From Frankia alni ACN14a (GTDB lineage Bacteria > Actinomycetota > Actinomycetes > Frankiales > Frankiaceae): a DNA stretch of 64,000 bases. The notes beneath the pieces were generated by a model, which worked only from the letters and a program-made list of their open reading frames with translations, had not been told where the DNA came from and searched no databases. This document shows, in pieces, positions 15,210 to 31,695 of the stretch. How positions within the stretch are numbered: the first letter of the stretch is position 1; every line of letters starts with the position of its first letter. The DNA lies in assembly GCF_000058485.1 (NCBI RefSeq), contig NC_008278.1:3714962-3778961 (forward strand), given 5' to 3'. The translations under genes and the position numbers were made by a program.

Positions 15210-18200
15210 ATGCGCGATTTGCGCCAGACCCTCGGACGATCCCCGCGCGCGGCGGGCGAGTCGGCCGAGGCGTGGCGGGCCCGGCTGGCCGGCCGGTCGG
15301 CGGACGCCCAGCATGAGCTGCTGCTCGACCTGGTCGCGGCCCAGGTGGCCGCGGTGGCCGGCCCGGGCGCCGGCATCGTCGATGCGGAGGCGCCGTGGCG
15401 CGCTCTGGGGATCTACCGCCACATCGCCGAGCGGCTGCGGGCGGCGCTGGCCGAGCAGACGGGTCTGCGCCTGTCCGCCACCCTGTTCTTCGACCGGCCG
15501 ACGCCGCGGGCCCTGGCGGACCATCTGCGCCGCGAACTGCTCGGGATCGGTGACGAGATCACCGCCGTGAGGCCGACCGCGGCGGGCCCCGCGGCGGGAC
15601 CGCTGGCGGGTGGGGCCGCGGCCGGCGACGGGCAGCGGCCGGCGGACGACCCGATCGTCATCGTCGGCATGGGTTGCCGGCTGGCCGGCGGCGTCGACTC
15701 GCCGGAGGCGCTGTGGGAACTGGTGCACGCCGGGCGAGACGCGGTCGCCGGACTGCCCGACGACCGGGGCTGGGACCTGGCCGGGCTCTACGACCCGAAC
15801 CCCGACCATCCCGGCACCGCCTACACCCGCCACGGTGGGTTCCTCACCGGCATCGACCAGTTCGATCCGGCGTTCTTCGGCATCGGCCCGCGGGAGGCCA
15901 ACGCCCTCGACCCGCAGCAGCGGTTGATGCTGGAGGTCTCCTGGGAGGCGGTGGAGCGGGCCGGCATCGATCCCCGGTCCCTGCGCGGCAGCCGCACCGG
16001 CGTGTTCACCGGCGTCTCGCTGCAGGACTACGGGCCGGCCTGGCACACCGCGCCGCAGGACGCGCAGGGCCAGTTGCTCACCGGCAACGCCTCCGGGGTG
16101 ATCGCCGGCCGGGTCGCCTACACCTTCGGGCTGGAGGGACCGGCGCTGAGCGTGGACACCCAGTGCTCCGCCTCGCTGGTCGCGACGCATCTCGCCAGCC
16201 AGTCGCTGCGCGCGGGGGAGTGTGACCTGGCGCTTGTCGGCGGGGTGACCGTCATGTCGACGCCGGGGATCCTGGTGGAGTTCAGCCGCAAGCGGGGGCT
16301 GGCGCCCGACGGACGGTGCAAGGCGTTCTCCGCCGACGCCGACGGCACCGGCTGGGCCGACGGCGCGGGCGTGCTGCTGCTGGAACGGCTCTCCGACGCC
16401 CGCCGCCGCGGCCACCGGGTCCACGCGGTGCTGCGCGCCACGGCGATCAACCAGGACGGCGCCAGCAACGGGCTGACCGCCCCCAACGGCCTGTCCCAGC
16501 AGCGGCTCATCCGCCAGGCGCTGGCCAACGCCGGCCTGCGGACCGCCGACGTCGACGCGGTGGAGGCGCACGGCACCGGCACCACGCTCGGCGACCCGAT
16601 CGAGGCCCAGGCCGTCCTCGCGACCTACGGTCAGGACCGGCCGGCCGGCCGGCCGCTGTACCTGGGCTCGCTGAAGTCCAACATCGGCCACGCCCAGGCC
16701 GCGGCCGGGGTCTGCGGGATCATCAAGATGGTCCAGGCGCTGCGGCACGAGGTGCTGCCGCGCACCCTGCACGTCCGCGAGCCCTCGCCGCACGTCGACT
16801 GGTCGGCCGGCGACGTCGAGCTGCTCACCGAAAACGTCGCCTGGCGGCGCCGTGAGGGCCGCCCGCGCCGGGCCGGCGTGTCCGCGTTCGGGGTGAGCGG
16901 CACCAACGCCCACGTCATCCTCGAGGAGCCCCCGGCCGAGCCGCGCCCGCCCGCGCCGCGCAGCGGCTGCGCCGACCGGCCCCGCACCACCACCCCACCC
17001 GCACCCACCACCCCGCCCGCACCCGTCACGCCGCCCGCCGCTGCCATCCCACCCACCACCGAACCCACCACTCCACCTGCCACTCCGACCGCCACCCCTC
17101 CCGCCGCCGCGGTGCCGGTGGCGTCCGGGGCGCCGGTCGCCGTCAGCGGCGCGGCGGTGCCGATCGTGCTGTCCGGTCGGACGCCGGCGGCGCTGCGCGC
17201 CCAGGCCGAGCGGCTTGCCGCGTACCTGGACCGCCGTCCGGGCCTCGACCCCGTCGACGTCGCCCACACCCTCGCCGGCCGGTCCCGCTTCGAGCACCGG
17301 GCGGTGGCGCTGGCCGGCCCGCGTCGAGGCGGCGACGGCGGCCGACGTCTCGCCGGTGCGCTGTCCGCGCTCGCGGCGGGCCGACCGGCGGCCGGGCTCG
17401 TTCTCGGCACGCGCCCCGCCACCCCGCCGGGCCGCACCGCCATGCTGTTCACCGGGCAGGGCAGCCAGCGCAACGGCATGGGCCGCGACCTCTACGACGC
17501 CTTCCCCGCGTTCGCCGACGACCTCGACGAGATCTGCGACCGGTTCGCCGACCACCTCGCCCGGCCGCTGCGGGAGGTGATGTTCGCCGCCCCCGGCACG
17601 CCCGACGCCGCCCTGCTCCACCGCACCGAGTACACCCAGCCGGCGCTGTTCGCCTTCGGTACGGCGCTGTACCGACTGGTCACCTCCTGGGGGGTGACCC
17701 CGGCACTGCTCGCCGGGCACTCGATCGGCGAGCTGACCGCCGCCCACGTCGCGGGCGTGTGGTCCCTGGACGACGCGGTGACGCTGGTCGCCGCCCGCGG
17801 CCGGCTCATGCAGTCCTGCCGTCCCGGCGGCGCGATGATCGCGATCCGGGCGGGTGCCGGCGAGGTCGCCGCGTCGCTGGCCGGCCAGGAGGGGCGGGTG
17901 GAGATCGCCGCCGTCAACGGTCCCGAGGCGACGGTCATCGCCGGGGACGCCGACGCCGCCGAGCGGATCGCCGCGGCCTGGGCGGCCCGCGGCCACGCGA
18001 CGAGGCGCCTCGCGGTCAGCCACGCCTTCCACTCCCCGCACATGGCGGGCATGCTCGACGAGTTCCGGGTCATCGCCGGGCAGGTCACCCACCACGCACC
18101 GGCGATTCCGATCGTGTCCACCCGCACCGGCGAGCCCGCCGGCGACGAGCTGTGCACCCCCGACTACTGGGCCGGTCACGCGCGTGGCGCGGTGCGCTTC

Positions 18201-21200
18201 CTCGACGCCGCCCGCCGCCTGCACGCCGAGGGCGCCGGCGCCTTCGTCGAGCTCGGCCCCGACGCGGTCCTCACCGCGCTGCTGCCCGGCTGCCTGCCGG
18301 CGGACGCCGCGGCGCCGATCGCGGTCGCGACGACCCGAGCCGGGCGGCCGGAGGCCGACACGCTGCTCACCGCCCTCGCCGGCCTTGACACGCACGGCGT
18401 CGACGTCGACTGGCGGGCCGTGATCGGCCGGGCCGGCACCGTGATCGACCTGCCCACCTACCCCTTCCAACGCCGGCGCTACTGGTTGGCGGGCACCGGC
18501 GCCGCCATCCCCGCCCCCCGTCAGGCCGACGGCACCCCGACCCCCGCCCCGCAAGGCGCCGCTGCCCCGCAAGGCGCCGCTGCCCCGCAAGGCGCCGCCG
18601 CCCGGCAAGCCGCCGACGCGCAGGCCGCCGACACGCTGCGCCTGGCGTGGACGGGCCGGCCCAGGGCCGCCGGACTCGGCGAGCCGGCGCAGCCCGCAGC
18701 CGGGGCCGCCGGTGATCCCGGCACCTGGCGGTACCGCACCGTCTGGCAGCCGATGGCCGACGCCGACCTCACCGCGGCCATCGCCGCGCAGGCCGCCACC
18801 ACCGGACCGTTGAGCGGCCGGTGGCCCGTGCTCATCCCGCCGGACGGGGTGGACGACGCGCTGCTCGCCCGCGTCACCTGGATGATCGAGCGTCTCGGTG
18901 GCACGCCGCTGCCGATCCCGCTCGCCCGGGCCGACCGGTCCGCGGTTGCCGCGCGCCTGGCCGAGGCGATCCGCCGCGACACGGGGTTCGGCGACACCGG
19001 ATTCGGCGAGGCGGCGGCGCCCGCAGGGGCCGTGCCCAGGGCCGACCGTGTCGGCGTCGACCGTGTCGGCATCGATCGAGTCGGCATCGATCGAGTCGGC
19101 ATCGATCGAGTCGGCGGCGTCGTGTCCCTGCTCGCCCTCGACGGCACCCCCCACCCGGACCACCCGCATCTCACCACCGGCCTCGCCCTCACCGTCACCG
19201 GCGTCCAGGCGCTGGGCGACCTGGGGGTCGGCGCGCCGCTGTGGGCCGTCACCCGCGGTGCGGTCACGACGGGCGCCGAGGATCCCGTCACCCAGCCGGA
19301 GCAGGCGATGGTCTGGGGTCTGGGCCGTACCCTCGCGCTGGAGACGCCGCAGGTCTGGGGCGGCCTCATCGACCTGCCGACCAGCCTCGACGACCAGACC
19401 CTGCTGTGGTTCGGCACCGCGTTGACCGCCCCCGGCGGCGAGGACCAGTTCGCCCCCCGCCCGCAGGGCCTGCGAGTACCCCGCCTGCTGCGCATCCCCG
19501 CATCGGACCCCGCCCCGACGGCGGCCCTGACGCCGGGGGAGGCGACCTGGCGGCCGGACGGGACCGTACTGATCACCGGCGGCACCGGCGCGCTCGGCGC
19601 GCACACCGCCCGCCGCCTGGCCCGCGACGGGGCCCGCCGTGTCGTCCTCGCCAGCCGGCGCGGTCCCGACAGCCCCGGCGCCCGGGAACTGCTCGGCGAG
19701 CTGGCGGCGCTGGGCACGCACGCCACGATCGACGCCTGCGACGTGGCCGACCCCGGCCGGCTCGCCGGGCTGCTGCGCGAGCTGGCCGACGCCGGCGAAC
19801 CGGTCACCGCCGTCGTGCACGCCGCGGGCACCGCCGGCCCGACCACGCCGCTGGCCCAGCTCACTCTGGCCGAGTTCGCGGGCGTGGTCGCCGGCAAGGT
19901 CGCCGGCGCCGGCACGCTCGACCGCCTGCTCGACGGCCCGGACGGGGCGAAGGTGGCGGCGTTCGTGCTGTTCTCGTCGATCTCGGGGGTCTGGGGCAGC
20001 GGTAACCAGGCCGCCTACAGTGCCGGCAACGCCTACCTCGACGCCCTCGCCGCCCGCCGTCGCGCCGAGGGCCGACCGGCCACCGCGGTGGCCTTCGGCC
20101 CCTGGGCCGATGCCGGTCTCGGCGCCGAGCCGGCGCTGCGCGACTACCTGACCCGCCGCGGCCTGCGCCCGCTGGCCCCCGAACCGGCCGTCACCGCGCT
20201 CACCCAGGCCGTCGCCGCGGGCGAGACGGCGCTGACCGTCGTCGACGTCGCCTGGGAGACGTTCCTGCCGTCCATCACCGCGGCCCGGCCCAGCCGCTTC
20301 TTCGAGGAGCTGCCCGTCGCCGCCCTGCCCGTCGCCGCGCTGCCCGCGGGACGGCTCGGGCAGTCGGCGACACCGGCCCAGGCGGGGCAGGCCCAGGCGG
20401 GGCAGGCCGCCCCGACCGTGCTCGACCTGCGCCCGCCGCGGCGCGCCCAGGTGCTGGTGGAGCTGGTCCATGCCGAGGCCGCGGCCATCCTCGGCCACGA
20501 CACCCCCGACGAGCTCGACCCGACCCGCCGCTTCCTCGAACTCGGCTTCGACTCCCTCGCCTCCGTCGAGCTCAGCCGCCGCCTGGCCACGGCGACCGGC
20601 CTGACGCTCGCCACCCAGGTGGTGTTCGAGCATCCGACGGTCACCGAACTCGCCGCCCACCTGGACACCCTCGCCGCCCAGGTGTCCGCCGCCCAGGTGT
20701 CCGCCGCCCGGGTGTCCGCCGCCCAGGTGTCCGCCGCTGGTCCGATGTCCGCCGCCGCGCGCCTGGCCGGCGCCTCCGGCGTCGCCGCGTCGGCGGGCAC
20801 GGGCACGACGGGTGGTGCGGTCGAGGTCGGGGTGCGTGGGCTGTACCGCCAGGCCTGCGCGCAGGGCAAGTTCGCCGCCGGCGTCGGCGTGCTGCGCGCC
20901 GCCGCCCGGCTGCGCCCGGTGTTCGACTCGGCCGCCGAGTTCGGCCCGCCCGCCAGACCGGTGCGCCTGGCCACCGGCCCGGCACCCGTCGCGCTGGTGT
21001 GCCTGCCGTCGATGGTGGCCCCGTCCGGGCCCCACAACTTCGCCCGGATCGCCCTGCACCTGCACGGTCTGCGCGACGTCTTCGCCCTGCCGCACCCGGG
21101 ATTCGGCGACGGCGAGCTGCTGCCGGCGAACGCGGAGCTCGTCGTCGAGATGCACGCCGACACCGTCGCGCGCGCCTTCCCCGTCACACCCGTCGTCCTC

Positions 21201-21671
21201 GCCGGGTACTCCTCCGGCGGCTGGCTGGCGCACGCCATCGCCTCCGCGCTGGAGGACCGGGGGGTGCACCCCGCGGCGGTGGCGCTGCTTGACACGTGGC
21301 TGCCCACCGACCGCATCCCGGAGGAGGACATCCACGAGGAGCTGCGCGGCATCGCCGTCAACGACCAGGCGTTCGCCCTGATGACCGAGGCGCAGATCAC
21401 CGCGCAGGGTGCCTACCTCGACCTGTTCGAGCACTGGCGGCCGCGCGCCGTCGCCGCCCCGGTCATGCTCCTGCGCGCGGCCGAGCGGATGCCCCGGGGC
21501 ACCGTCGCCGAGGACATCACCGGGCACGGCCAGGCGTGGACGACCGACTGGTCGATGGATCACGACTCCTTCGACGTGGCCGGCGACCACCAGTCGATGA
21601 TGAACGAGCACGCCGCGTCGACCGCCCGGGACCTGCACCGCTGGCTGGAGCGGCTGGAAGGGGCGAGGTAG
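15210..21671 (+). CDS. Type I polyketide synthase: degenerate ACP-KS-AT-KR-ACP-TE
   Basis: A 2153-residue single-module PKS. Order: an N-terminal ACP-like domain (about 30-110) whose LGFDSL is LGIYRH, so no phosphopantetheine Ser; KS (about 150-570) with Cys319 in VDTQCSASL, plus HGTGT and SNIGH; AT (about 740-1050) with GHSIGE (Ser838) and HAFH, predicting malonyl-CoA; KR (about 1445-1640) with TGGTGALG, GVWGSG and Tyr1603, no LDD, hence predicted A-type; ACP (about 1745-1820) with Ser1782 in LGFDSL; TE (about 1880-2150) with GYSSGG (Ser2001) and a late GDHQSM His. No DH, ER or methyltransferase domain is seen. Repetitive linkers occur (VGIDR units at about 1290, VSAAQ units at about 1830). 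ATG 15210 follows GGTGGGAG. It likely adds malonate to a tailored acyl starter and leaves a hydroxyl. Confidence 0.93.
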   Translation: MRDLRQTLGRSPRAAGESAEAWRARLAGRSADAQHELLLDLVAAQVAAVAGPGAGIVDAEAPWRALGIYRHIAERLRAALAEQTGLRLSATLFFDRPTPRALADHLRRELLGIGDEITAVRPTAAGPAAGPLAGGAAAGDGQRPADDPIVIVGMGCRLAGGVDSPEALWELVHAGRDAVAGLPDDRGWDLAGLYDPNPDHPGTAYTRHGGFLTGIDQFDPAFFGIGPREANALDPQQRLMLEVSWEAVERAGIDPRSLRGSRTGVFTGVSLQDYGPAWHTAPQDAQGQLLTGNASGVIAGRVAYTFGLEGPALSVDTQCSASLVATHLASQSLRAGECDLALVGGVTVMSTPGILVEFSRKRGLAPDGRCKAFSADADGTGWADGAGVLLLERLSDARRRGHRVHAVLRATAINQDGASNGLTAPNGLSQQRLIRQALANAGLRTADVDAVEAHGTGTTLGDPIEAQAVLATYGQDRPAGRPLYLGSLKSNIGHAQAAAGVCGIIKMVQALRHEVLPRTLHVREPSPHVDWSAGDVELLTENVAWRRREGRPRRAGVSAFGVSGTNAHVILEEPPAEPRPPAPRSGCADRPRTTTPPAPTTPPAPVTPPAAAIPPTTEPTTPPATPTATPPAAAVPVASGAPVAVSGAAVPIVLSGRTPAALRAQAERLAAYLDRRPGLDPVDVAHTLAGRSRFEHRAVALAGPRRGGDGGRRLAGALSALAAGRPAAGLVLGTRPATPPGRTAMLFTGQGSQRNGMGRDLYDAFPAFADDLDEICDRFADHLARPLREVMFAAPGTPDAALLHRTEYTQPALFAFGTALYRLVTSWGVTPALLAGHSIGELTAAHVAGVWSLDDAVTLVAARGRLMQSCRPGGAMIAIRAGAGEVAASLAGQEGRVEIAAVNGPEATVIAGDADAAERIAAAWAARGHATRRLAVSHAFHSPHMAGMLDEFRVIAGQVTHHAPAIPIVSTRTGEPAGDELCTPDYWAGHARGAVRFLDAARRLHAEGAGAFVELGPDAVLTALLPGCLPADAAAPIAVATTRAGRPEADTLLTALAGLDTHGVDVDWRAVIGRAGTVIDLPTYPFQRRRYWLAGTGAAIPAPRQADGTPTPAPQGAAAPQGAAAPQGAAARQAADAQAADTLRLAWTGRPRAAGLGEPAQPAAGAAGDPGTWRYRTVWQPMADADLTAAIAAQAATTGPLSGRWPVLIPPDGVDDALLARVTWMIERLGGTPLPIPLARADRSAVAARLAEAIRRDTGFGDTGFGEAAAPAGAVPRADRVGVDRVGIDRVGIDRVGIDRVGGVVSLLALDGTPHPDHPHLTTGLALTVTGVQALGDLGVGAPLWAVTRGAVTTGAEDPVTQPEQAMVWGLGRTLALETPQVWGGLIDLPTSLDDQTLLWFGTALTAPGGEDQFAPRPQGLRVPRLLRIPASDPAPTAALTPGEATWRPDGTVLITGGTGALGAHTARRLARDGARRVVLASRRGPDSPGARELLGELAALGTHATIDACDVADPGRLAGLLRELADAGEPVTAVVHAAGTAGPTTPLAQLTLAEFAGVVAGKVAGAGTLDRLLDGPDGAKVAAFVLFSSISGVWGSGNQAAYSAGNAYLDALAARRRAEGRPATAVAFGPWADAGLGAEPALRDYLTRRGLRPLAPEPAVTALTQAVAAGETALTVVDVAWETFLPSITAARPSRFFEELPVAALPVAALPAGRLGQSATPAQAGQAQAGQAAPTVLDLRPPRRAQVLVELVHAEAAAILGHDTPDELDPTRRFLELGFDSLASVELSRRLATATGLTLATQVVFEHPTVTELAAHLDTLAAQVSAAQVSAARVSAAQVSAAGPMSAAARLAGASGVAASAGTGTTGGAVEVGVRGLYRQACAQGKFAAGVGVLRAAARLRPVFDSAAEFGPPARPVRLATGPAPVALVCLPSMVAPSGPHNFARIALHLHGLRDVFALPHPGFGDGELLPANAELVVEMHADTVARAFPVTPVVLAGYSSGGWLAHAIASALEDRGVHPAAVALLDTWLPTDRIPEEDIHEELRGIAVNDQAFALMTEAQITAQGAYLDLFEHWRPRAVAAPVMLLRAAERMPRGTVAEDITGHGQAWTTDWSMDHDSFDVAGDHQSMMNEHAASTARDLHRWLERLEGAR

Positions 21672-21677
21672 CCGCGC

Positions 21678-21718
21678 GTCGGCAGGTCGGCAGGTCGGCA
21701 GGTCGGCAGGGTCGGCAG
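21678..21718. repeat. 8-bp tandem repeats after the PKS
   Basis: Five copies of GTCGGCAG, with one extra base before the last, lie directly after the PKS stop codon. Confidence 0.8.
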
Positions 21719-21735
21719 GTCCACTGACCGGGTGT

Positions 21736-21777
21736 GCGGTGCGGTGCGGGGACGGCCCTGTCCCCGCACCGCACCGC
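21736..21777. terminator. Perfect 18-bp stem hairpin, bidirectional terminator
   Basis: GCGGTGCGGTGCGGGGAC (21736-21753) pairs perfectly with 21760-21777 across the six-base loop GGCCCT. It lies between the convergent PKS and phosphodiesterase genes. There is no U-tract, as is common in high-GC actinobacteria. Confidence 0.75.
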
Positions 21778-21801
21778 CGCCGCGCCGTGGCGCGGCAGCT
21801 C

Positions 21802-22992
21802 TCAGGTCGCCGAGTGCGGGGCCGGCTGGACGGCGGCGATCGACTGCCCGGCGGCGACGGCCCGGGCGAGGACGCCGATGTCCGCCTGGTCGGTGAACAG
21901 CCCGTCGACGCCGGCCCTGAGGTAGGCGACCTGCTCGTCGATGGCCCGGCCGAAGTCGTTCGGCGAGGTGCCGCGGCGGTAGTCCGCCGGCAGGAACGTG
22001 TTCTCCGCCCGGAACGTGTACGGGTGCAGGACGAGCCCGGCGGCGTGCGCGTCGGCGACCAGCGAGGTCGGCCGCCCCAGCGTTCCGTCGGCGGCCTTGG
22101 GGATGACCTGCAGCTTGTCGGGGCCGATGCCGGTGGCGTAGGCGGCGATGCCCCGCAGGCCGGCCGGCGTCACGAGGTCGGCGTAGGTCCGCTTGTCCCC
22201 GGCGTCGACGAGGTCGAACGGCGCCCCCTCGGCCGACAGCAGCTGCACCACCGGCGTGCGCAGCCCCAGCGTGCGCAGCTGGGCGAGGTTCGCCGTCTCG
22301 AAGGACTGGACGAACACCGCCGCATCCCGCCGGTTCAGGCCGTAGCGGTTCAGCGTGTCGACGAGGCGCTGTTCCAGGGGCAGCCCGGCCTTGGTGAAGT
22401 AGGTCGGGTGCTTGGTCTCCGGGTAGACGCCGATTTCCCGGCCGAGCTCCTTCGACAGCCGGACCCGCAGGTCGAGGACCTCGGTGAAGGTCGGGATCTC
22501 GAACAGCCCGTCGTAAAGGGTGTTCTCCTGGCGCACGTCGGGCAGCCGCTCCTTGGCGCGCAGCGTCTTGAGCTCGGCCAGGGTGAAGTCCTCGGTGAAC
22601 CAGCCGGTGGTCGCGACGCCGTCGAGGGACACCGTCTTCTTCCGGCCGGCGAACTCGGGGTGGTCGGCGACGTTCGTCGTCCCGCCGATCTCCGGTTCGT
22701 GCCGGCAGACGAGGACGCCGTCCTTCGTGGGCACCAGGTCGGGCTCCACGAAGTCCGCGCCCAGGCGGGCGGCCAGCTCGTAGGAGGCCAGGGTGTGCTC
22801 GGGGCGGTAGCCGGAGGCGCCGCGGTGCCCGATGACCAGCGTCGAACGGCGGCGCTCGGCACCGGCGGCGGGCGCACCGGCGGGGGGTGCACCGGCGGCG
22901 AGCGCGGGCCCGGCCGCCGCCACCGAGGCGACGAGCGGAGCGGCGGCGAGAGGTGTGGCGACGATTCCCGCAAGCACCCGGCGGCGGTCCAC
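21802..22992 (-). CDS. Secreted glycerophosphodiester phosphodiesterase
   Basis: A 396-residue GDPD that hydrolyses glycerophosphodiesters to glycerol-3-phosphate and an alcohol. Seen: VIGHRGASGYRPEHTLASY (catalytic His and metal Glu), FVEPDLVPTKDG (metal ligands), and YPETKHP. The N-terminus starts DRRRVLAG and continues with an Ala-rich hydrophobic stretch ending ALAAG, a Tat-type signal peptide lacking one Arg-Arg consensus position, so export is likely. The GTG at 22992 has GGAGGA five bases upstream, deciding the start. It is on the strand opposite to the PKS cluster; whether it belongs to it is unclear. Confidence 0.9.
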   Translation of the reverse strand: MDRRRVLAGIVATPLAAAPLVASVAAAGPALAAGAPPAGAPAAGAERRRSTLVIGHRGASGYRPEHTLASYELAARLGADFVEPDLVPTKDGVLVCRHEPEIGGTTNVADHPEFAGRKKTVSLDGVATTGWFTEDFTLAELKTLRAKERLPDVRQENTLYDGLFEIPTFTEVLDLRVRLSKELGREIGVYPETKHPTYFTKAGLPLEQRLVDTLNRYGLNRRDAAVFVQSFETANLAQLRTLGLRTPVVQLLSAEGAPFDLVDAGDKRTYADLVTPAGLRGIAAYATGIGPDKLQVIPKAADGTLGRPTSLVADAHAAGLVLHPYTFRAENTFLPADYRRGTSPNDFGRAIDEQVAYLRAGVDGLFTDQADIGVLARAVAAGQSIAAVQPAPHSAT

Positions 22993-23288
22993 GGATCCTC
23001 CAGCGTGCCCGGATGGCGACCCTCGCCCCTGGCGGCGCCCACCCAGCGAAGCGAGCACAGATTTCGGCGCGGAGGATCGGGCCTTGCCCGCCGGGGTCGC
23101 CCAGCCGTCGAGTTGGTGAACACCCCCACGGAACATCGACGGGAAAAGTGGCTCCGGCGATTCGATATTCCAATGGCCACGGCGGATCCGGCGCCGTCGT
23201 GGTTAGCGTTGGGCCCGTCCTGGAGCAAATGCCCCGATGCTCCGACGGGATGCGTCGAGCAGCGACGTGACCAGGAGGGAGACCGCGC

Positions 23289-24302
23289 ATGGCGAGTGTC
23301 GATCCTGCTGTCCGCGCCGCCGGAGCCCGCGCCGCCGGAGCCCGCGCCGTGGCGTCGGAGCCGCGCCGCAAGACGGTCAGCAATTCCTTTCTGCACCGCC
23401 TCCAGCGCCGTCACTTCCTGATGTTCGACGTGCTCCCGATCGCCGGTACCGCGGCCGCCGTCGCCTTTCTGTGGGTGCAGCCGCTCGGCGTCACCGAAAT
23501 CGCGTTGCTGTTCACCTTCTGGCTGGTGACCGGACTGGGCATCAGCGTCGGATATCATCGGTTGTTCACTCATCGCACCTTCAAGTCCGCGCCGTCGGCG
23601 GCGGCGGTTCTCGCGGTCTGCGGCTCCATGGCCGGGCAGGGTGGCGTCGTGTCCTGGGTCGCGCTGCACCGTCGGCACCACGAGTGCAGCGACCGCGAGG
23701 GCGATCCGCATTCGCCGAACCTCGCCGGCGGCGGGCTACGGGGGCGGCTGCGCGGACTGGCGCACTCGCACTTCCTGTGGATGCGCCGGCACGAATATCC
23801 CAATGTCGCGCACTATGCCCCGGACCTGATCCGCAACCGGCCGCTGATGCGCGTCGCCCGCCGCTACCACCTGTGGGTCGTGCTGGGCCTGCTGCTGCCG
23901 GCCCTCGTCGGCGGCCTGGCCCACCGCAGCTGGGAAGGCGCCGTCAGCGGCCTGCTCTGGGGTGGCCTCGTGCGCATGTTCGTGCTGGAACACACGATCT
24001 GGGCGATCAACTCGTTCCTGCACATGTTCGGTACGCGGCCGTACGAGTCCCGGGAGAACAGCCGCAACGGCGGGATCTTCGCCCTGCTGACCTTCGGGGA
24101 ATCCTGGCACAACAACCATCACGCCTTCCCCGACTCGCCGTCGTTCGGGCTCACCTGGTACCGGCTCGACCCCGGCTACTGGCTGATCCGGATCCTGGCG
24201 GCCGGCGGGCTCGCCCGGGACATCCGGTTGCCGTCCGGGCAGCGCAGGGCGGCCCAGCGGACGGGGCGCCGCGAGGCCGCCGGCCTCGACCCCGCTACCT
24301 GA
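23289..24302 (+). CDS. Membrane fatty acid desaturase (acyl-CoA/acyl-ACP desaturase family)
   Basis: A 337-residue di-iron integral membrane desaturase of the stearoyl-CoA desaturase type. The three histidine boxes are intact: HRLFTH (H90, H95), HRRHH (H127, H130, H131) and HNNHH (H274-H278). Hydrophobic segments lie at about 45-63, 66-86, 103-122, 193-212 and 220-240. It inserts a cis double bond into an acyl chain using O2 and reductant. ATG 23289 follows AGGAGGGAG. In this cluster the substrate may be the chain on the ACP encoded 118 bp downstream; enzymes of this fold also act as acetylenases in alkyne pathways. Confidence 0.9.
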   Translation: MASVDPAVRAAGARAAGARAVASEPRRKTVSNSFLHRLQRRHFLMFDVLPIAGTAAAVAFLWVQPLGVTEIALLFTFWLVTGLGISVGYHRLFTHRTFKSAPSAAAVLAVCGSMAGQGGVVSWVALHRRHHECSDREGDPHSPNLAGGGLRGRLRGLAHSHFLWMRRHEYPNVAHYAPDLIRNRPLMRVARRYHLWVVLGLLLPALVGGLAHRSWEGAVSGLLWGGLVRMFVLEHTIWAINSFLHMFGTRPYESRENSRNGGIFALLTFGESWHNNHHAFPDSPSFGLTWYRLDPGYWLIRILAAGGLARDIRLPSGQRRAAQRTGRREAAGLDPAT

Positions 24303-24318
24303 CCTACGGACTCCGGGG

Positions 24319-24360
24319 CCTGGCCCGCGGATTCCCGGACCTGGCCCGCGGATTCCCGGA
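24319..24360. repeat. Two 21-bp direct repeats between desaturase and ACP
   Basis: Two identical 21-bp copies, 24319-24339 and 24340-24360, beginning CCTGGCCCGCGG, occupy the 117-bp gap before the ACP gene. Confidence 0.85.
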
Positions 24361-24419
24361 GCTGACCGCCGATCTCCGGATCTGACACACGCCAGACCTG
24401 ACGTACGGAGGAGGAGACA

Positions 24420-24704
24420 GTGGACGCCGCCGCTCGGGAGGGCATCGCCCAGTGGTGTCGGGATCATGTCGCGGACATCCTGGAGCAGCCGGTGTCCGAG
24501 ATCGACCTCGACGCTGACTTCGACCGCCTCGGGGTGGATTCGGCCGTCGCGGTCTCGCTGCTGATCGCGGTCGAGGACCACTACGGCGTCGACGTAGCCC
24601 CCGAGTCGCTGTTCGAGAACCCGACGCTCAACGCGCTCGCGGCCCACCTGTACGACCAGGGCGCCCGGGAGCCGGTGGCCAGCCCGGACCTGGCCCAGCG
24701 GTGA
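24420..24704 (+). CDS. Free-standing acyl carrier protein
   Basis: A 94-residue ACP. The phosphopantetheine site is Ser41 in LGVDSAV, within the usual four-helix pattern, with LFENPTLNALAAHLY as the last helices. The GTG at 24420 follows GGAGGAGGAG. The stop overlaps the start of the methyltransferase gene (GTGA). It is expected to carry the acyl chain made by the fatty acyl-AMP ligase and present it to the tailoring enzymes and the PKS. That partner assignment is from gene order and family knowledge. Confidence 0.9.
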   Translation: MDAAAREGIAQWCRDHVADILEQPVSEIDLDADFDRLGVDSAVAVSLLIAVEDHYGVDVAPESLFENPTLNALAAHLYDQGAREPVASPDLAQR

Positions 24705-25627
24705 CGGCGCCCGCCGACGCTGACCGGGCGGCGGGGGCGGCGGCGGCCGTCCGCCATCATTACGACGTCGGCGACGAGTTCTACCGCCTTTGGCTGGACA
24801 GCTCGCTGACCTACTCCTGTGCGATGTGGGAGCCGGTCGGCGGGGAGACCCTCGACGGCGGCGGGGACGCCCTGGCGGTCGCCCAGGAACGCAAGCTGCG
24901 CTTCCACCTCGACGCGGTGGGGGCCGACCGGGCCCGGGCGGTCCTCGACGTCGGCTGTGGCTGGGGGTCGGTGCTGGCCCGGCTGGCGGTGCGGCACGGG
25001 GTGCCGCGGTCGGTCGGCCTCACGCTCAGCGAGCGGCAGGCGGCCCATGTCCGGTCGCAGGCCCTTCCCGGCGTCGAGGTCCGCCTCGAGAACTGGATGG
25101 ACTACACCCCGCAGGGCCGCTTCGACGGCATCATCTCGATCGGCGCGTTCGAGCACTTCGCCACGCCGGCGGACCCGCCGGCCGAGAAGATCCGCATCTA
25201 CCGCGAGTTCTTCACCCGCTGTCACCGCTGGCTGACGCCGGACGGCGTGCTGTCCCTGCAGACGATCGCCTACGCGAGCATGCGCCGCGAGCAGGCCAAC
25301 GGGTTCATCCAGCGGGAGATCTTCCCCGACGCCGACCTGCCCACCCTCGCCGAGATCACCGCCGCCGCCGAGGGGATCTTCGAGGTCCGGGCGCTGCACA
25401 ACGGTCGGTTCGACTACGCCCGCACCTGCGAGGAATGGGCCCGCCGGCTGCGGGCCCGCCGCGACGAGGCGGTGGCGCTCGTCGGGCCGGATGTCGTCGC
25501 CCGCTACGAGCGTTACCTGCGGTTGTCTGCGGTCGGCTTCCGGATGCGCCGGATCTGCCTGCTGCGCCTGGTGCTCGTCCCCTACCGCGGCACCGACGTA
25601 GACGGCCCCGGCGGTCCGGCCCGATGA
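24701..25627 (+). CDS. Cyclopropane-fatty-acid-synthase-like SAM methyltransferase
   Basis: A 308-residue member of the CFA/mycolic acid cyclopropane synthase family, which transfers a SAM methyl group to a cis double bond to give a cyclopropane or a methyl branch. Seen: HHYDVGDEFYRLWLDSSLTY at 19-38 (family N-terminal motif), SAM loop VLDVGCGWG at 81-89, GLTLSERQ, and GAFEHF. It starts on GTG overlapping the ACP stop, and its own stop overlaps the P450 start, so it is translationally coupled. It presumably acts on the double bond made by the neighbouring desaturase; outcome (ring versus branch) cannot be told from sequence. Confidence 0.9.
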   Translation: MTAPADADRAAGAAAAVRHHYDVGDEFYRLWLDSSLTYSCAMWEPVGGETLDGGGDALAVAQERKLRFHLDAVGADRARAVLDVGCGWGSVLARLAVRHGVPRSVGLTLSERQAAHVRSQALPGVEVRLENWMDYTPQGRFDGIISIGAFEHFATPADPPAEKIRIYREFFTRCHRWLTPDGVLSLQTIAYASMRREQANGFIQREIFPDADLPTLAEITAAAEGIFEVRALHNGRFDYARTCEEWARRLRARRDEAVALVGPDVVARYERYLRLSAVGFRMRRICLLRLVLVPYRGTDVDGPGGPAR

Positions 25628-27045
25628 CGCACCGCCCGGCCGCGTCCACGGCACCGGCCGTGCCAACGCCATCGCCTGTGCCAACGCCATCGGCTGTGCC
25701 AACGCCATCGGCTGTGCCAACGCCATCGACCGCGTCCACGGCATCGGCGGCGCCTACGGCACCTGCCGCGGCGCGGTTCAACCCGTTCAGCGCTGCGTTC
25801 CGCGCCGACCCCTACCCGGTCTACCGGGAGCTGCGCCGGACGTCGCCGGTCCTGCGGACGATGGGCATGTGGGTGCTGACCCGCCACGCCGACGTCCGCG
25901 CCGTGCTGCACGACCGCACCTTCAGCGCCGGGCTGATCCCACGGCTGGTCAGCCGAGCCGCTGGCGGCGACGCCCTCGGCTCCGTCGCTGCCGGCAACTC
26001 GGGCAGGTCCGGCAACGCCGAGCGGATGGTCCAGCTGGCGCACACCTCGCTCGTCTTCACCGACAACCCGCAGCACGCTCGGCTGCGTGCCCTGGTCAAC
26101 CGGGTGTTCACCACCGCTGAGGTCACCCGGCTGCGGCCCCGGATCGCCGCGATCGCCCGCGGCCTGCTCGACCGGGCGCTGTCCGACTGCGGCGGTCTGG
26201 ACGCGGTCACCGACCTCGCCGGGCCCCTGCCGATCGCCGTCCTCAGCGAGTGGATGGCGCTGCCGGACGATGTGCGTGGCGAGGTCGGTCGGTGGACGCA
26301 CGACGTCCGGTTCCTGCTCGAACCCGGCCTGATGGCGCCCGGCGAGGTCGACCGCGTCGGCGAGGTCGTCGCGACCTTCGCCGACGCCATGGCCGGCGTC
26401 ATCGCCGCCCGCCGCGCCCGGCCCGGCGACGACCTGGTCAGCCGGCTGCTCGCCGCGCGCACCGGCGGCGGGGACCGGCTCACCGACACCGAACTCGGCT
26501 TCCTGTGCATCATGTGCTTCGTTGCCGGCGTCGAGACGACAACGGCCCTCATCGGCAACGGGCTGCTCGCCCTGGTGCACCATCCCGACACCGCGGCGCT
26601 GCTGCACCGGCGGCCGGAGCTGGTCGCTGCCGCCGTCGAGGAGGCGCTGCGCTACGACAGCCCCCTGCAGCTCACCAAGCGCCTCGCCACCCGCGACGTC
26701 GAGCTCGGCGGCAGCCGGATCCGTGCCGGCGAGCAGGTGCTGCTCTGCCTCGGCGCGGCCAACCGGGACCCCGCGGTGTTCGACCGGCCGGACACCTTCG
26801 ACATCACCCGCCCGGCGGGGGGCCACCTCGCCTTCGGCCATGGGATGCACGGCTGCCTCGGCGGCATGCTCGCCAGGGCTCAGGCCGAGATCGTCTTCGG
26901 CTGCCTCACCGGCCGCGCCGAACGCCTCGCGCCCGCGGTCGACCGGCACGGTGACGCCGGCGGGCGGGACCTTCCCCGCCAGGAGCACAGCCTCATCGTC
27001 CGCGGGCTGACCAGCCTGCCCGTCGCGCTGGCGGGGGCCTGGTGA
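25624..27045 (+). CDS. Cytochrome P450
   Basis: A 473-residue bacterial class I P450. The I-helix oxygen-binding segment is FVAGVETTTALIGNG, the ExxR motif is in EEALRYDSP, and the heme loop FGHGMHGCLGG puts the thiolate at Cys411. The first 45 residues or so are a repetitive PTPSAV linker encoded by 18-bp tandem repeats (about 25665-25720), not part of the fold. It overlaps the genes on both sides by 4 bp. It likely hydroxylates or epoxidises the ACP-bound or free lipid; no dedicated ferredoxin gene is seen in the cluster. Confidence 0.93.
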   Translation: MTHRPAASTAPAVPTPSPVPTPSAVPTPSAVPTPSTASTASAAPTAPAAARFNPFSAAFRADPYPVYRELRRTSPVLRTMGMWVLTRHADVRAVLHDRTFSAGLIPRLVSRAAGGDALGSVAAGNSGRSGNAERMVQLAHTSLVFTDNPQHARLRALVNRVFTTAEVTRLRPRIAAIARGLLDRALSDCGGLDAVTDLAGPLPIAVLSEWMALPDDVRGEVGRWTHDVRFLLEPGLMAPGEVDRVGEVVATFADAMAGVIAARRARPGDDLVSRLLAARTGGGDRLTDTELGFLCIMCFVAGVETTTALIGNGLLALVHHPDTAALLHRRPELVAAAVEEALRYDSPLQLTKRLATRDVELGGSRIRAGEQVLLCLGAANRDPAVFDRPDTFDITRPAGGHLAFGHGMHGCLGGMLARAQAEIVFGCLTGRAERLAPAVDRHGDAGGRDLPRQEHSLIVRGLTSLPVALAGAW

Positions 27046-28886
27046 CGGGCGGGCCTGCGGCGGGGACGCGAACCGATCACGACGTGGCGGGCGCCCTGCT
27101 GCCGGACGTGCTGCGCCGACGCGCCGCCGGCGACCCGGACGGGCGGGCGTTCATCCTGCTCGACGAGCACGGCGACGAGCGGGCCGCGCTGACCTACCGG
27201 GAGCTGTACACCCGGGCGCTGGCCATCGCCGACCGGCTGGGCCGCCGCTGCGGGCCGGGGGAGCGGGCGCTGCTGGTCTTCCCGCAGGGCCTGGAGTTCA
27301 TCGTTGCCTACTTCGGCTGCCTGTACGCCCGCGTCATCGCCGTGCCGGTCAACCCGCCGCGCCGCGGCGCGGTCCAGGACGCCACCCGCGCGATCGTGCG
27401 GGACTGCGCGCCCACCGCCGTCCTGTCCACCGGCCCGATGATCGACGTGGTCCGGGTGCCGCTGGAGGCCGTCACCGGCCCGCTGGCGTGGATCGCGGTG
27501 GACGAGACCGTCCCCGAGCCGACCCTGGAGCCGACCGACGCTGCGCCGGACTGGTCGGGCGAGCCGGACACGGTCGCGTTCCTTCAGTACACCTCCGGGT
27601 CCACGGCCGACCCGAAGGGCGTGATGGTCACCCATCGCAACCTGGCGGCGAACCAGGAGATGATCCGGCTCGCCTTCGGCCACGACCGGCACTCGACGTT
27701 CGTCGGCTGGGCGCCGCTGTTCCACGACCAGGGCCTCATCGGCAACGTGCTGCAACCGCTGTACCTCGGCGCGACCGGCGTGCTGCTGGACCCGGGGGCG
27801 TTCATCCGCCGCCCACTGCTGTGGCTCGCGGCGATCTCCCGCTACCGCGCCCACACCAGCGGCGGTCCGAACTTCGCCTTCGACGTCTGCGCGGCCGCGG
27901 CGGCCGGCGGCGGCGTGCCCGACCTGGACCTGAGCTGCTGGCGGGTCGCGTTCAACGGCGCCGAACCGATCCGCGCCGACACGCTGCGCCGCTTCGCCGA
28001 CGCCTTCGCCCCGGTCGGATTCGACCCGCGCGCGCTCTACCCCTGCTACGGCCTGGCCGAGGCGACGCTGCTGGTCACCGGCAGCCGCAAGGGCCGCGGC
28101 CCCCGCACCCTCGACGCGGACGCCGACGGGCTCGGCGCGGGCCGTTACACCCCGACCCCACCCGGCCGCGGCCGGCCCCTCGTCGGCTCCGGCCTTGCCC
28201 CCGCCGCCTTCGATGGCGCCACGGCGCAGGCCGAGGGCGCCATGGCGCTCGGGCCGTGGGTCGCAGCCGAGGTGCGGATCGTCGATCCGGAGACCGGGCG
28301 CGGCGCTCCGCCCGACCGGATCGGGGAGATCTGGGTCGCCGGCGACCACGTGGCGGCCGGCTACTGGCAGCGCCCGGCGGCCACCGCCGACACCTTTCAG
28401 GCCCGCTGCGCCGACGCGCCCGGCCGCTCCTATCTGCGCACCGGCGACCTCGGCCTGATCGTCGACGGCGAGCTGTACGTCGTGGGTCGGCACAAGGACA
28501 TGCTGGTCCTGCGCGGCCGCAACCACTACCCGCAGGACCTCGAACAGACCGCCGCGGCGGCGCACCCCGCGCTGCGGCCCGGCGGGTGCGCCGCCTTCGC
28601 GGTCCCGGGCCCGGGCGGGGAACGCCCCGTCGTCGTCCAGGAGGTGCGCGGCGAACCCGGCACGGACGCCGACCCCGCGGACGTCGCCGGGTCGATCCGC
28701 GCCGCGGTGGTGCGCCAACACGACCTCACGCTGGCGGACCTGGTGCTCGTCCGCCCGGGCACACTGCCCAAGACCAGCAGCGGCAAGATCATGCGAGCCG
28801 CCGCCCGCCGCCGCTACCTGGCTGGCGACCTCGCACCGTGGGCGGCTTCGCCCCCTGCCGCGCCGGCGTCGTCCCCGGCCGGCTGA
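27042..28886 (+). CDS. Fatty acyl-AMP ligase (FAAL)
   Basis: A 614-residue ANL-superfamily adenylating enzyme. The P-loop-like motif is LQYTSGSTADPKG at 181-193, followed by GWAPLFHDQGLIG, LYPCYGLAEATLLVTG, the hinge region LGLIVDGELYVVGRHKDM and the C-terminal KTSSGKIMR lysine motif. The early motifs (FPQGLEF, PVNPP), the length and the HDQGLIG segment are those of FAALs, which form acyl-AMP and hand the acyl group to an ACP or PKS rather than to CoA. The start GTG overlaps the P450 stop. It is the likely chain-initiation enzyme of the cluster. Confidence 0.9.
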   Translation: MTGGPAAGTRTDHDVAGALLPDVLRRRAAGDPDGRAFILLDEHGDERAALTYRELYTRALAIADRLGRRCGPGERALLVFPQGLEFIVAYFGCLYARVIAVPVNPPRRGAVQDATRAIVRDCAPTAVLSTGPMIDVVRVPLEAVTGPLAWIAVDETVPEPTLEPTDAAPDWSGEPDTVAFLQYTSGSTADPKGVMVTHRNLAANQEMIRLAFGHDRHSTFVGWAPLFHDQGLIGNVLQPLYLGATGVLLDPGAFIRRPLLWLAAISRYRAHTSGGPNFAFDVCAAAAAGGGVPDLDLSCWRVAFNGAEPIRADTLRRFADAFAPVGFDPRALYPCYGLAEATLLVTGSRKGRGPRTLDADADGLGAGRYTPTPPGRGRPLVGSGLAPAAFDGATAQAEGAMALGPWVAAEVRIVDPETGRGAPPDRIGEIWVAGDHVAAGYWQRPAATADTFQARCADAPGRSYLRTGDLGLIVDGELYVVGRHKDMLVLRGRNHYPQDLEQTAAAAHPALRPGGCAAFAVPGPGGERPVVVQEVRGEPGTDADPADVAGSIRAAVVRQHDLTLADLVLVRPGTLPKTSSGKIMRAAARRRYLAGDLAPWAASPPAAPASSPAG

Positions 28887-28896
28887 GACGCCCGCG

Positions 28897-29475
28897 GTGG
28901 CGGTGCGCCCGGCCAACCCCGACTACGTCCGGTTCGTCACCGAGACGGTTCTCAGCATGCCCGCTGCGGCCCGGCTGGGTTTCCGGGTCGGGCGGGTGAC
29001 ACCCGGCGAGGTCGAACTCCTCCAGCCCTGGCGCCATGAGCTCACCCAGCATGACGGCCACCTGCAGGCTGGCGTCCTCGCCTCGCTGGCGGACCTCGCC
29101 GCCGGTTGCGCCGCGGGAACCCTGCTGCCGGCCGGCTGGGTCAACATGACCGTCGACGTCACCCTGAAGATCCTCGCCCCGGCGAGCGGCGCGGCCTTCC
29201 TCGCCCACGGCCGGGTGGTCCACGCGGGCCTGACGACGACCATCGCCGCCGCCGACGTCTGGTGCGTCCCGACCACTGACGGCGCAACCGTCCTTTCCGG
29301 TGCCGAGGGCGATGAAGGGTTCGACATCGACGCCGACTCAGGGACGGGCCGATCCGGGTCCGACGATCCACTCGGCCCCCGCCGACCCGCAGAGACGATG
29401 TGCGCCACCGCGCTGATCACCTTCCGCAACATCCGCCGCCATCCGCCCCGTCCGCCGAGCCGCCGCCCCAGCTGA
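28897..29475 (+). CDS. PaaI-type hotdog thioesterase
   Basis: A 192-residue hotdog-fold protein. ELTQHDGHLQAGVLASLADL matches the catalytic/substrate helix region of PaaI/YdiI-like acyl thioesterases, followed by NMTVDVTLKILAPA and the outer strand HAGLTTTIAAADVW. About 45 low-complexity residues (Asp/Ser/Gly/Pro) interrupt the C-terminal part before ATALITFRN. It lies 10 bp after the ligase and is the last gene of the operon. Possible roles are release or editing of acyl chains. Confidence 0.85.
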   Translation: MAVRPANPDYVRFVTETVLSMPAAARLGFRVGRVTPGEVELLQPWRHELTQHDGHLQAGVLASLADLAAGCAAGTLLPAGWVNMTVDVTLKILAPASGAAFLAHGRVVHAGLTTTIAAADVWCVPTTDGATVLSGAEGDEGFDIDADSGTGRSGSDDPLGPRRPAETMCATALITFRNIRRHPPRPPSRRPS

Positions 29476-30249: not shown

Positions 30250-31695
30250 TCAGGCGGTGTTCCGTAGGTGTGGTGGGGGTTGGCTGTAGGGGTTGCGGCG
30301 GGGTCGGCGTAGTGGGTCGATGCGGTGGGGTGGGATGAGTGCGGGGCGGTGGTCGTCGGTGAAGATGATGTCCCAGCCGTCGTGGTGGACCCGGCGGTGG
30401 TGGGTGGCGCAGAGCAGGAGCAGGTTGTGCAGAGCGGTGGGTCCGCCGTCGCGCCAGTGGATCGCGTGGTGTGCTTCGCACCAGGACGGTGGCCGATCGC
30501 AGCCCGGGAACACGCATCCCTGATCGCGGATGGCCAGGGCGCGGCGCAGGTGCGCGGGAACGGTGCGGGTTGATCGTCCGACGTCGAGGGGGACACCGGC
30601 GGGGTCGAGCAGGATGCGGCTGATTTCCGCGTCGCAGCTCAGTCGGGCCAGGGCAGCGCGGGGCAGGGGAAGCCCCCAGCTGGTGGTGGCGGGGATGGTG
30701 TCGGCGGCGAGCAGGGTCTTCCAGGGGATCGTGACGGTCAGGTGGGGTCGAACTCCGCCGGATTCCGGTAGTGCGGCGGCGCCGAGGGCGCGGCTGATCA
30801 GGTCGATGAGGGCGTCGGCGCGGCGGCGGGCCGGGCTGCGGGAATCAGAGGTGCCGTCGACGGCGGGGTGGGGTGCGGCGAGGCTGTCCAACGCGGTGCG
30901 GAGCATCGCGGCGCCTTCGGCGTCGAGCTCGCCGCTGAGCAGGGTGGTGCCGGCGGGGGTGTCGGTGAGGGTCAGGCGGCGGATGTCGGCGGGATCGGGG
31001 CTTGGCCTCTCGCGGTTGTTCGTGTCCGCGCTGTCACCATCCCCGCCAGCATTGCCGGCGCCAGCATTGCCGGCGCCAGCATTGCCCGTGCGGCCGCTGC
31101 CGGGGTTGTTGTGTTCGCCGGTCTGGCTGTCGGCGTGGGGGTCGTCGCCGCCGGGGGAGGTGTCGACCATGGTCAGTGCTTCGCGTTGGCGGGCGGCGAG
31201 TTTCACCAGCTGGTAGGGGTCGAACGTGTGGGCGAAGGCGAGCAGGGCCAGTTCGGCTTCGCCGCGCTGTTCGGGTGTCACCCCGGCAGGCAGCGACCGC
31301 ATCGCCTCGCAGATCACGACGGCGTGCTCGACGGTGAGCTCACCGGCCGCCAGGGCCGCGCCGGTGGCCCGGCACACCTCGTGAACATCACGGGCGAGAG
31401 TGATCTGCCTACGCGCCTCCCGGGACGCCAGCGCCAGCCGATCCCGCAACCAGGCAGCAGTGTCCACCGCTCCCTGACGCAGCGCGAAACCCCGATCCTG
31501 CGCCTCGACCAGCAGCCGACCACGCGCCGCCGCGACCCGCCCGACCAGCCGGCAGACCCCTTCGATCAACGCCTCCAACTCGCCGTCCGACAGCCGCCAG
31601 GTCTCATCCGACAGCAGCCCCTCGACCTGCCCGGCGATCACCGCCAGCCGCGCCGGTGGCACCGGCCCGTCTCGCGCGCCGTCCTCGAAACTCAT
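30250..31695 (-). CDS. DUF222 / 13E12-type HNH endonuclease
   Basis: A 481-residue member of the DUF222-HNH family, common in many paralogous copies in actinobacteria. DUF222 occupies about 20-330 (SDGELEALIEGVCRLVGRVA, HTFDPYQLVKLAARQREAL). The HNH domain near the C-terminus reads CVFPGCDRPPSWCEAHH, HWRDGGPTALHNLLLLC, HHRRVHHDGW. The central linker has GNAGA repeats. The biological role of the family is unclear. It sits right next to a truncated SnoaL-like gene, so its arrival may have caused that truncation. Confidence 0.9.
   Translation of the reverse strand: MSFEDGARDGPVPPARLAVIAGQVEGLLSDETWRLSDGELEALIEGVCRLVGRVAAARGRLLVEAQDRGFALRQGAVDTAAWLRDRLALASREARRQITLARDVHEVCRATGAALAAGELTVEHAVVICEAMRSLPAGVTPEQRGEAELALLAFAHTFDPYQLVKLAARQREALTMVDTSPGGDDPHADSQTGEHNNPGSGRTGNAGAGNAGAGNAGGDGDSADTNNRERPSPDPADIRRLTLTDTPAGTTLLSGELDAEGAAMLRTALDSLAAPHPAVDGTSDSRSPARRRADALIDLISRALGAAALPESGGVRPHLTVTIPWKTLLAADTIPATTSWGLPLPRAALARLSCDAEISRILLDPAGVPLDVGRSTRTVPAHLRRALAIRDQGCVFPGCDRPPSWCEAHHAIHWRDGGPTALHNLLLLCATHHRRVHHDGWDIIFTDDHRPALIPPHRIDPLRRPRRNPYSQPPPHLRNTA

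What the first reader, a model, noticed from the sequence alone, without database searches (positions are those of the whole stretch)
15210..29475. Lipid-polyketide cluster combining FAAL, ACP, desaturase, CFA-type methyltransferase, P450 and a one-module PKS
The sequence shows all seven enzymes on one strand. Family knowledge gives each step: FAAL loads a fatty acid on the ACP, desaturase adds a double bond, CFA-like enzyme methylates or cyclopropanates it, P450 oxidises, and the PKS adds a malonate unit and reduces it to a hydroxyl before TE release. I infer a cyclopropyl or methyl-branched, oxidised beta-hydroxy lipid or a lactone. I know of no described cluster with this exact set.
Basis: partly seen in the sequence, partly recalled or inferred. 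Interest (0 to 1): 0.78.

Follow-up and report, generated by a model that had tools for sequence, protein, structure and literature searches.

The report
Frankia fatty-acid tailoring operon beside unrelated PKS
A nitrogen-fixing plant symbiont carries an operon that appears to load a fatty acid onto a carrier protein, put in a double bond, methylate it and oxidise it; much the same cassette, with an unusual methyltransferase active site, recurs in cyanobacteria and some other bacteria, while the large polyketide synthase next door is probably not part of it.

Summary
The genes are real and mostly named correctly; the genome matches Frankia alni ACN14a (FRAAL3447-3453). Two points change the picture. 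(1) A phosphodiesterase gene on the opposite strand (21802-22992) and a strong hairpin separate the PKS from the rest. PKS relatives are common in Frankiaceae, often without the lipid genes; adjacency was seen in 3 of 17 module-bearing genomes. (2) Desaturase, ACP, CFA-type methyltransferase, P450, FAAL and thioesterase form one tight operon. Its five core genes stand in this order in 14 of 35 Frankiaceae genomes, in Nocardia vinacea and in one cyanobacterium; a shorter FAAL-desaturase-ACP-methyltransferase cassette recurs in other cyanobacteria. The methyltransferase has Gln where cyclopropane synthases have the bicarbonate-binding His; of seven solved relatives whose alignments I saw, only MmaA4 shares it. 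Loci with the Gln form have a FAAL within 8 kb in 41 of 57 cases, loci without it in 1 of 66 (related, partly pre-selected loci). I read it as ACP-bound fatty-acid tailoring giving a methyl-branched, oxidised acid; a cyclopropane is uncertain, PKS extension unlikely. Three genes are on a published symbiosis list, but the link is weak in my survey.

The parts
23289..24302 (+). membrane fatty-acid desaturase (FRAAL3449), three His boxes HRLFTH, HRRHH, HNNHH
   Evidence: PF00487 88 bits; sequence; orthologs of 69-96% identity (some partial) in 16 other Frankiaceae genomes
24420..24704 (+). free-standing acyl carrier protein, Ser in LGVDSA
   Evidence: PF00550 68 bits; sequence
24701..25627 (+). 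CFA/mycolic-acid-type C-methyltransferase (FRAAL3451); Cys40, Glu151, Tyr239 kept, bicarbonate His replaced by Gln187
   Evidence: PF02353 211 bits; alignments
25624..27045 (+). cytochrome P450 with heme Cys in FGHGMHGCLGG
   Evidence: PF00067 100 bits; sequence; start chosen by the 4-bp overlap with the methyltransferase gene
27042..28886 (+). fatty acyl-AMP ligase (FRAAL3453, called putative peptide synthetase in PMC10252897)
   Evidence: fatty acyl-AMP-ligase models 326-448 bits, best CoA-ligase model 299, none over its cut-off; solved FAALs up to 473 bits
28897..29475 (+). hotdog-fold thioesterase
   Evidence: TIGR00369 44.5 bits, cut-off 36.6
   Evidence: PF03009 154.7 bits; FRAAL3448 glpQ named in PMC9956245 (passages)
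21736..21777 (.). hairpin with a 19-bp GC-rich stem between the convergent PKS and GDPD genes, possibly a two-way terminator
   Evidence: 130-nt region 21672-21801 folds at z -3.97, 0 of 200 shuffles as low; palindrome also in sister loci L172 and L173. The consensus scan did not list it as a terminator
15210..21671 (+). one-module type I PKS KS-AT-KR-ACP-TE with a serine-less N-terminal ACP remnant (FRAAL3447 by numbering); neighbour, probably not part of the pathway

Best explanation
The six genes 23289-29475 are a self-contained operon for tailoring a fatty acid while it is bound to a small carrier protein. Proposed order: FAAL adenylates a fatty acid and loads it on the free-standing ACP; the membrane desaturase puts in a double bond; the CMAS-type enzyme moves a methyl group from SAM to that double bond; the P450 oxidises the chain; the hotdog thioesterase releases the acid. 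Because the methyltransferase has Gln in place of the bicarbonate-binding His, I lean to a methyl-branched product (alcohol or shifted double bond, as with MmaA4) over a simple cyclopropane. The PKS upstream is a separate gene. Shown here: the genes, their overlaps, the conserved order and linkage, the Gln substitution and its link to FAAL genes, the separate distribution of the PKS. Inferred: every reaction, the order of steps, the substrate and the product.
For: Gene families. Overlapping genes. Desaturase ortholog in 17 of 35 Frankiaceae; the five core genes in the same order on one contig in 14 of these 17; one decayed, two split by contig ends. Same five genes plus hotdog thioesterase in Nocardia vinacea and in G361, same order in cyanobacterium G719 (P450 34%, thioesterase match only 52 bits). 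Tree of 115 methyltransferases: clade of 34, support 100/99, 32 Gln; FAAL within 8 kb in 27 of 34 against 1 of 81 outside. With more loci 41 of 57 against 1 of 66. PKS relatives in ten genomes without the module methyltransferase, and 1.6 Mb from the module in single-contig G002. Sister locus in G003 keeps PKS and GDPD but lacks the module. GDPD is near the PKS in G000, G003, G004, G007, G010 and G011, of which G003 and G010 have no module methyltransferase.
Against: No chemistry, expression or metabolite was tested. Many loci were fetched with the cassette methyltransferase as query and are related, so the linkage counts are not independent; in the genome scan alone it is 6 of 11 Gln loci against 1 of 69 others. 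Of 64 Gln rows, 17 lack a FAAL match over 150 bits, among them paralogs in mycobacterial methyltransferase arrays; three rows inside the extended clade are not Gln. In the extended, weakly supported tree FAAL linkage is 46 of 55 inside and 4 of 87 outside. Cys40 is Ala, Ser or Gly in several cassette enzymes outside Frankia. Cassettes elsewhere do abut a PKS (21 of 55 clade rows), so feeding a PKS is a real mode of this cassette.
Confidence: 0.6

Rival explanations
1. One reading: the tailored acyl-ACP is passed to the PKS, which adds one malonate, reduces it to a hydroxyl and releases a beta-hydroxy acid or lactone.
For: In cyanobacteria the cassette methyltransferase is often followed at once by a KS (6 of 16 fetched loci, a seventh 3 kb on). 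PKS-module adjacency is kept in G000, G011 and G004, and G014 has another PKS there. The window PKS lacks a carrier serine at its N-terminus and so may need an outside donor. Its AT has the HAFH motif of malonyl-type domains (rule recalled, sequence).
Against: GDPD gene and hairpin in between; PKS relatives in ten genomes without the module and away from it in others; the missing N-terminal serine is the same in module-negative G003.
Confidence: 0.2
2. Same operon, but the methyltransferase is a true cyclopropane synthase despite Gln187, giving an oxidised cyclopropane fatty acid (a variant of the best explanation, not exclusive of its other parts).
For: Cys40, Glu151 and Tyr239 are kept in all 14 rows of A2; the Gly before AFEH is as in cyclopropane synthases, not the Glu of MmaA4.
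Against: The five best PDB relatives (CmaA1, CmaA2, 1l1e, MmaA2, CFA synthase 7qos) have His; MmaA4, which makes an alcohol and no ring (recalled), has Gln.
Confidence: 0.35
3. It is an alkyne (JamABC-type) cassette with extra genes.
For: FAAL, desaturase and ACP together are the published screening criterion for alkyne potential (PMC8406139, passages).
Against: An alkyne needs no methyltransferase, which is kept in the module; no rubredoxin or second desaturase among the genes scanned around it.
Confidence: 0.05

Closest known systems
JamABC alkyne cassette and polyyne clusters (caryoynencin, protegencin)
   Same: FAAL + free ACP + membrane desaturase; thioesterase in polyyne clusters, a P450 in some actinobacterial ones (PMC8406139, passages)
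   Different: One desaturase, no rubredoxin seen next to it, and a CFA-type methyltransferase in the cassette
Mycolic-acid methyltransferases, especially MmaA4 (hydroxymycolate synthase)
   Same: CMAS family, methyl transfer to a chain double bond (recalled), Gln at the bicarbonate-His position
   Different: The cassette enzymes form a separate clade from mycobacterial mycolate-type rows and sit beside a FAAL and an ACP
FadD32-Pks13 (mycolate condensation; pathway recalled)
   Same: FAAL near a one-module PKS with an N-terminal ACP-like region
   Different: Window PKS scores 731 bits against the Pks13 cut-off of 2100 and has a KR; its N-terminal ACP lacks the serine; not linked to the FAAL in most relatives

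Membership tests
Fatty acyl-AMP ligase | Scores better against FAAL than CoA-ligase models | tested here: met
   326-448 bits for fatty acyl-AMP-ligase models, 299 for the best CoA-ligase model; no cut-off passed
Fatty acyl-AMP ligase | Adenylates a fatty acid and loads ACP, not CoA | not testable with these tools
   bench assay needed
Cyclopropane fatty acid synthase | CMAS domain | tested here: met
   211 bits, cut-off 27
Cyclopropane fatty acid synthase | Bicarbonate-binding His in the L-H-T-I motif (role recalled) | tested here: not met
   Gln187 in the window enzyme and all 14 rows of A2; His in the five best solved relatives
Cyclopropane fatty acid synthase | Closes a cyclopropane ring | not testable with these tools
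   product assay needed
JamABC alkyne / polyyne cluster | FAAL + desaturase + ACP side by side | tested here: met
JamABC alkyne / polyyne cluster | Two further desaturases and a rubredoxin (polyyne) | tested here: not met
   none among the window proteins scanned with Pfam around the operon; not searched genome-wide as a set
FAAL-primed type I PKS cluster | PKS kept together with FAAL/ACP in relatives | tested here: not met
   adjacent in 3 of 17 module-bearing genomes, G009 not judgeable, G014 with another PKS; relatives elsewhere without the module
NF045894 type I PKS (window PKS) | Score over the curated cut-off | tested here: met
   1957 bits, cut-off 1740

The most novel reading that the evidence does not exclude
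FAAL-desaturase-ACP-methyltransferase is an unnamed biosynthetic cassette found in actinobacteria, cyanobacteria and at least one gammaproteobacterium, in which a CFA-synthase relative with a rewritten active site (His to Gln) makes methyl-branched or methyl-carbinol acyl-ACP instead of cyclopropane. Cyanobacteria use it, sometimes with three methyltransferases in a row, as a starter unit for PKS/NRPS lines; Frankiaceae add a P450 and a thioesterase and release a free acid that may matter in nodules.
Probability: 0.4. Interest if true: 0.72.

Novelty: new variant of a known kind. Interest (0 to 1): 0.56.

Why it matters
It gives a sequence marker (Gln at the bicarbonate site plus a neighbouring FAAL) for what look like carrier-protein-bound methyltransferases that are named as phospholipid cyclopropane synthases, and predicts a new kind of lipid starter unit. 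Screens that count FAAL + desaturase + ACP as alkyne potential may have included such cassettes (inference). In Frankia it names a concrete lipid operon, three genes of which stand on a published list of genes kept in symbiotic strains (PMC10252897), in a symbiosis whose bacterial signals remain elusive.

Tried and rejected
PKS as part of a single cluster: rejected on synteny. Serine-less N-terminal ACP of the PKS as a sign that it depends on the operon's ACP: not supported, the same in module-negative G003. Strict symbiosis marker: nifH over cut-off in 25 of 35 genomes; module in 15 of 25 with nifH and 2 of 10 without, Fisher p 0.06, kinship ignored. In the nodule proteome paper PMC8951365 the only FRAAL34xx number in the main text is FRAAL3408, so no module protein is named there (passages). 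Literature on bicarbonate His/Gln in CMAS enzymes: listings showed nothing useful. Promoter/terminator scan: nothing above chance. Model name NF045894 in papers: none. No structure prediction was run; it would not decide the chemistry. Left unused at the end: 1 genome search, 8 protein-family and 4 solved-structure searches.

First alignment A1 held two rows read on the wrong strand (18% identity) and was replaced by A2. The extended FastTree had weak deep support (0.30 for the 56-tip group used); the support quoted elsewhere is, whose rows include 15 Frankiaceae orthologs but not the window enzyme itself (the window enzyme is). Row numbers of second and third copies differ. Dropped before counting: methyltransferase matches under 80 bits or covering under about 200 residues. 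Mechanism facts on CmaA1, E. coli CFA synthase, MmaA4, PcaA (name for 1l1e) and Pks13 are recalled.

Full report
What is there. The window is G000:C1:3714962-3778961 of a 7,497,934-base single-contig genome. Gene starts given for Frankia alni ACN14a in PMC10252897 (FRAAL3449 3738250, FRAAL3451 3739662, FRAAL3453 3742003; table passages) fall exactly on the desaturase, methyltransferase and FAAL of the window (23289, 24701, 27042), so I take the organism to be that strain. The desaturase has three His boxes, the ACP its serine, the P450 its heme cysteine, and the PKS the expected KS, AT, KR, ACP and TE motifs (read; motif rules recalled).

A GlpQ-type phosphodiesterase (21802-22992, minus; FRAAL3448 glpQ in PMC9956245, passages) lies between the PKS and the desaturase. 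The 130 bases between the PKS and this gene hold a hairpin with a 19-bp stem (z -3.97). The PKS thus ends against a convergent gene, and the lipid genes start on the far side of it, divergent from it. From ACP to FAAL the genes overlap by 4 bases each; the thioesterase follows after 10 bases.

The PKS is independent. I searched 35 Frankiaceae genomes. The desaturase ortholog (69% or more) is in 17; the methyltransferase in 16, the seventeenth (G034) being split by contig ends. Desaturase-ACP-methyltransferase-P450-FAAL stand in this order on one contig in 14 of the 17; G004 has the order but decayed genes, and G005 and G034 are broken by contig ends. The window's PKS is next to them only in G000, G011 and G004; G009 cannot be judged (its contig starts at the desaturase); G014 has a different PKS there. 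The ACP-TE end of the PKS has matches of 59-92% identity in many Frankiaceae, among them G001, G003, G008, G010, G012, G016, G018, G021, G028 and G033 (partial in some), which showed no module methyltransferase at E 1e-40. In G002, a single contig, PKS and module are 1.6 Mb apart. GlpQ, by contrast, is near the PKS in G000, G003, G004, G007, G010 and G011. In G003 the PKS (84%) and GlpQ (94%) stand side by side and a homolog of the oxygenase gene that lies downstream in the window is 3 kb on, but the module is missing. FRAAL3447, the PKS by numbering, heads the list of proteins overabundant in propionate- against fumarate-fed nitrogen-fixing cells (10.8-fold, tied with FRAAL4683; PMC10252897, table passage). 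FRAAL3449, 3451 and 3453 occur once each in that text, in Table 1, and FRAAL3450, 3452 and 3454 not at all, so no module protein is in that list.

The module elsewhere. A sample of 393 genomes of the class gave 22 with a strong match: 16 Frankiaceae and 6 others. All six others have Gln; five of six have a FAAL match in the 20 kb fetched. A sample of 388 genomes of the Scytonema order gave 17. In the 16 besides Scytonema itself, each has a Gln enzyme (two also have a second, His one), 15 an ACP near it, 13 a desaturase, 11 a FAAL and 7 a KS within the fetched stretch, several cut by contig ends. One of them, G719, has desaturase-ACP-methyltransferase-P450-FAAL-desaturase-thioesterase, the Frankia order with one desaturase more; its P450 is 34% identical and its thioesterase match weak (52 bits).

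The methyltransferase. In the 16 Frankiaceae rows aligned, the motif of cyclopropane synthases reads LQTI instead of LHTI. The His is, from recalled structural work, a bicarbonate ligand in CmaA1 and E. coli CFA synthase. CmaA1, CmaA2, 1l1e (PcaA, recalled), MmaA2, CFA synthase 7qos and UmaA show His in the alignments printed; MmaA4 shows Gln. Two further CFA synthases and MmaA1 were listed but their alignments not shown. The host's own ordinary CFA synthase (G000:C1:4793698) has His. In a tree of 115 rows the 15 Frankiaceae orthologs sit in a clade of 34 (support 100/99), 32 with Gln; outside it 8 of 81 have Gln. A FAAL match over 150 bits within 8 kb was found for 27 of 34 and 1 of 81. With further cyanobacterial and Solirubrobacteraceae loci: 41 of 57 loci with a Gln enzyme against 1 of 66 without; by row, FAAL in 47 of 64 Gln and 2 of 77 His rows. 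These loci are related and many were found with the cassette itself, so the counts show linkage, not a probability; the genome scan alone gives 6 of 11 against 1 of 69. Gln also occurs without FAAL, for instance in mycobacterial methyltransferase arrays.

Mechanism. The simplest reading is a carrier-bound fatty-acid pathway like the JamABC alkyne cassette (PMC8406139, passages), with C-methylation in place of further desaturation. In cyanobacteria the modified chain probably starts a PKS or NRPS line; in Frankiaceae, where no PKS is kept, a P450 acts and a thioesterase frees the acid: a hotdog one in 9 of 17 genomes, and in 7 a gene between P450 and FAAL that looks like a type II thioesterase (one of the seven tested with Pfam, the rest by position and start of sequence). 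Loss of the His suggests that the carbocation formed on methyl transfer is not closed to a ring; this is inference, and MmaA4 is the only characterised parallel I saw.

Symbiosis. FRAAL3449, 3451 and 3453 are among 108 genes listed as kept in seven symbiotic strains and absent from two non-infective ones (PMC10252897, results, methods and table passages). In my wider set the module is in 15 of 25 genomes with nifH and 2 of 10 without (p 0.06, kinship ignored): a tendency, not a rule. The passages I saw of the nodule proteome paper name no module protein (PMC8951365).

Verdict. The gene observation is right but incomplete; the one-cluster reading is not supported; a conserved cassette found in several phyla, with an altered methyltransferase, is the more interesting finding. 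No paper combining FAAL, cyclopropane and desaturase was found, nor one with Frankia, gene clusters and fatty acyl-AMP ligase; that library holds open-licence papers only.

Noticed in passing
L054 9394-12179 and L200 9543-12676: A Scytonema MAG carries two clusters each with three tandem methyltransferases after FAAL-desaturase-ACP, one before a FAAL-NRPS and one before a PKS-NRPS; one of the six enzymes reads Ser, not Gln, at the key position in the alignment.
   Followed up: partly
L155 9344-11905, L156 9155-11725, L157 7638-11974: Three genomes of one other genus share a PKS and a Gln-type methyltransferase next to one or two FAALs.
   Followed up: partly
L057 6877-8825: An actinobacterial Gln-type methyltransferase overlaps an acyl-ACP-type desaturase gene (PF03405), which fits an ACP-bound substrate.
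   Followed up: partly
L172 1400-4600: Where sister G003 lacks the module there are other genes (an HTH_20 gene, and by eye a transposase-like reading frame), suggesting gain or loss of the module as a unit.
   Followed up: partly
L036 12950-17230: In G004 the desaturase, P450 and FAAL are in pieces: the module is decaying there while the PKS and GlpQ match over nearly their whole length.
   Followed up: no
15210-21671 (PKS linkers) and 21672-21730: Short in-frame repeats in the PKS linkers (such as GIDRV, PQGAA, AQVSA) and a GGCAGGTC repeat just before the hairpin.
   Followed up: no
30250-31695: DUF222 gene on the minus strand downstream of the operon, matched also in G004 and G009.
   Followed up: no
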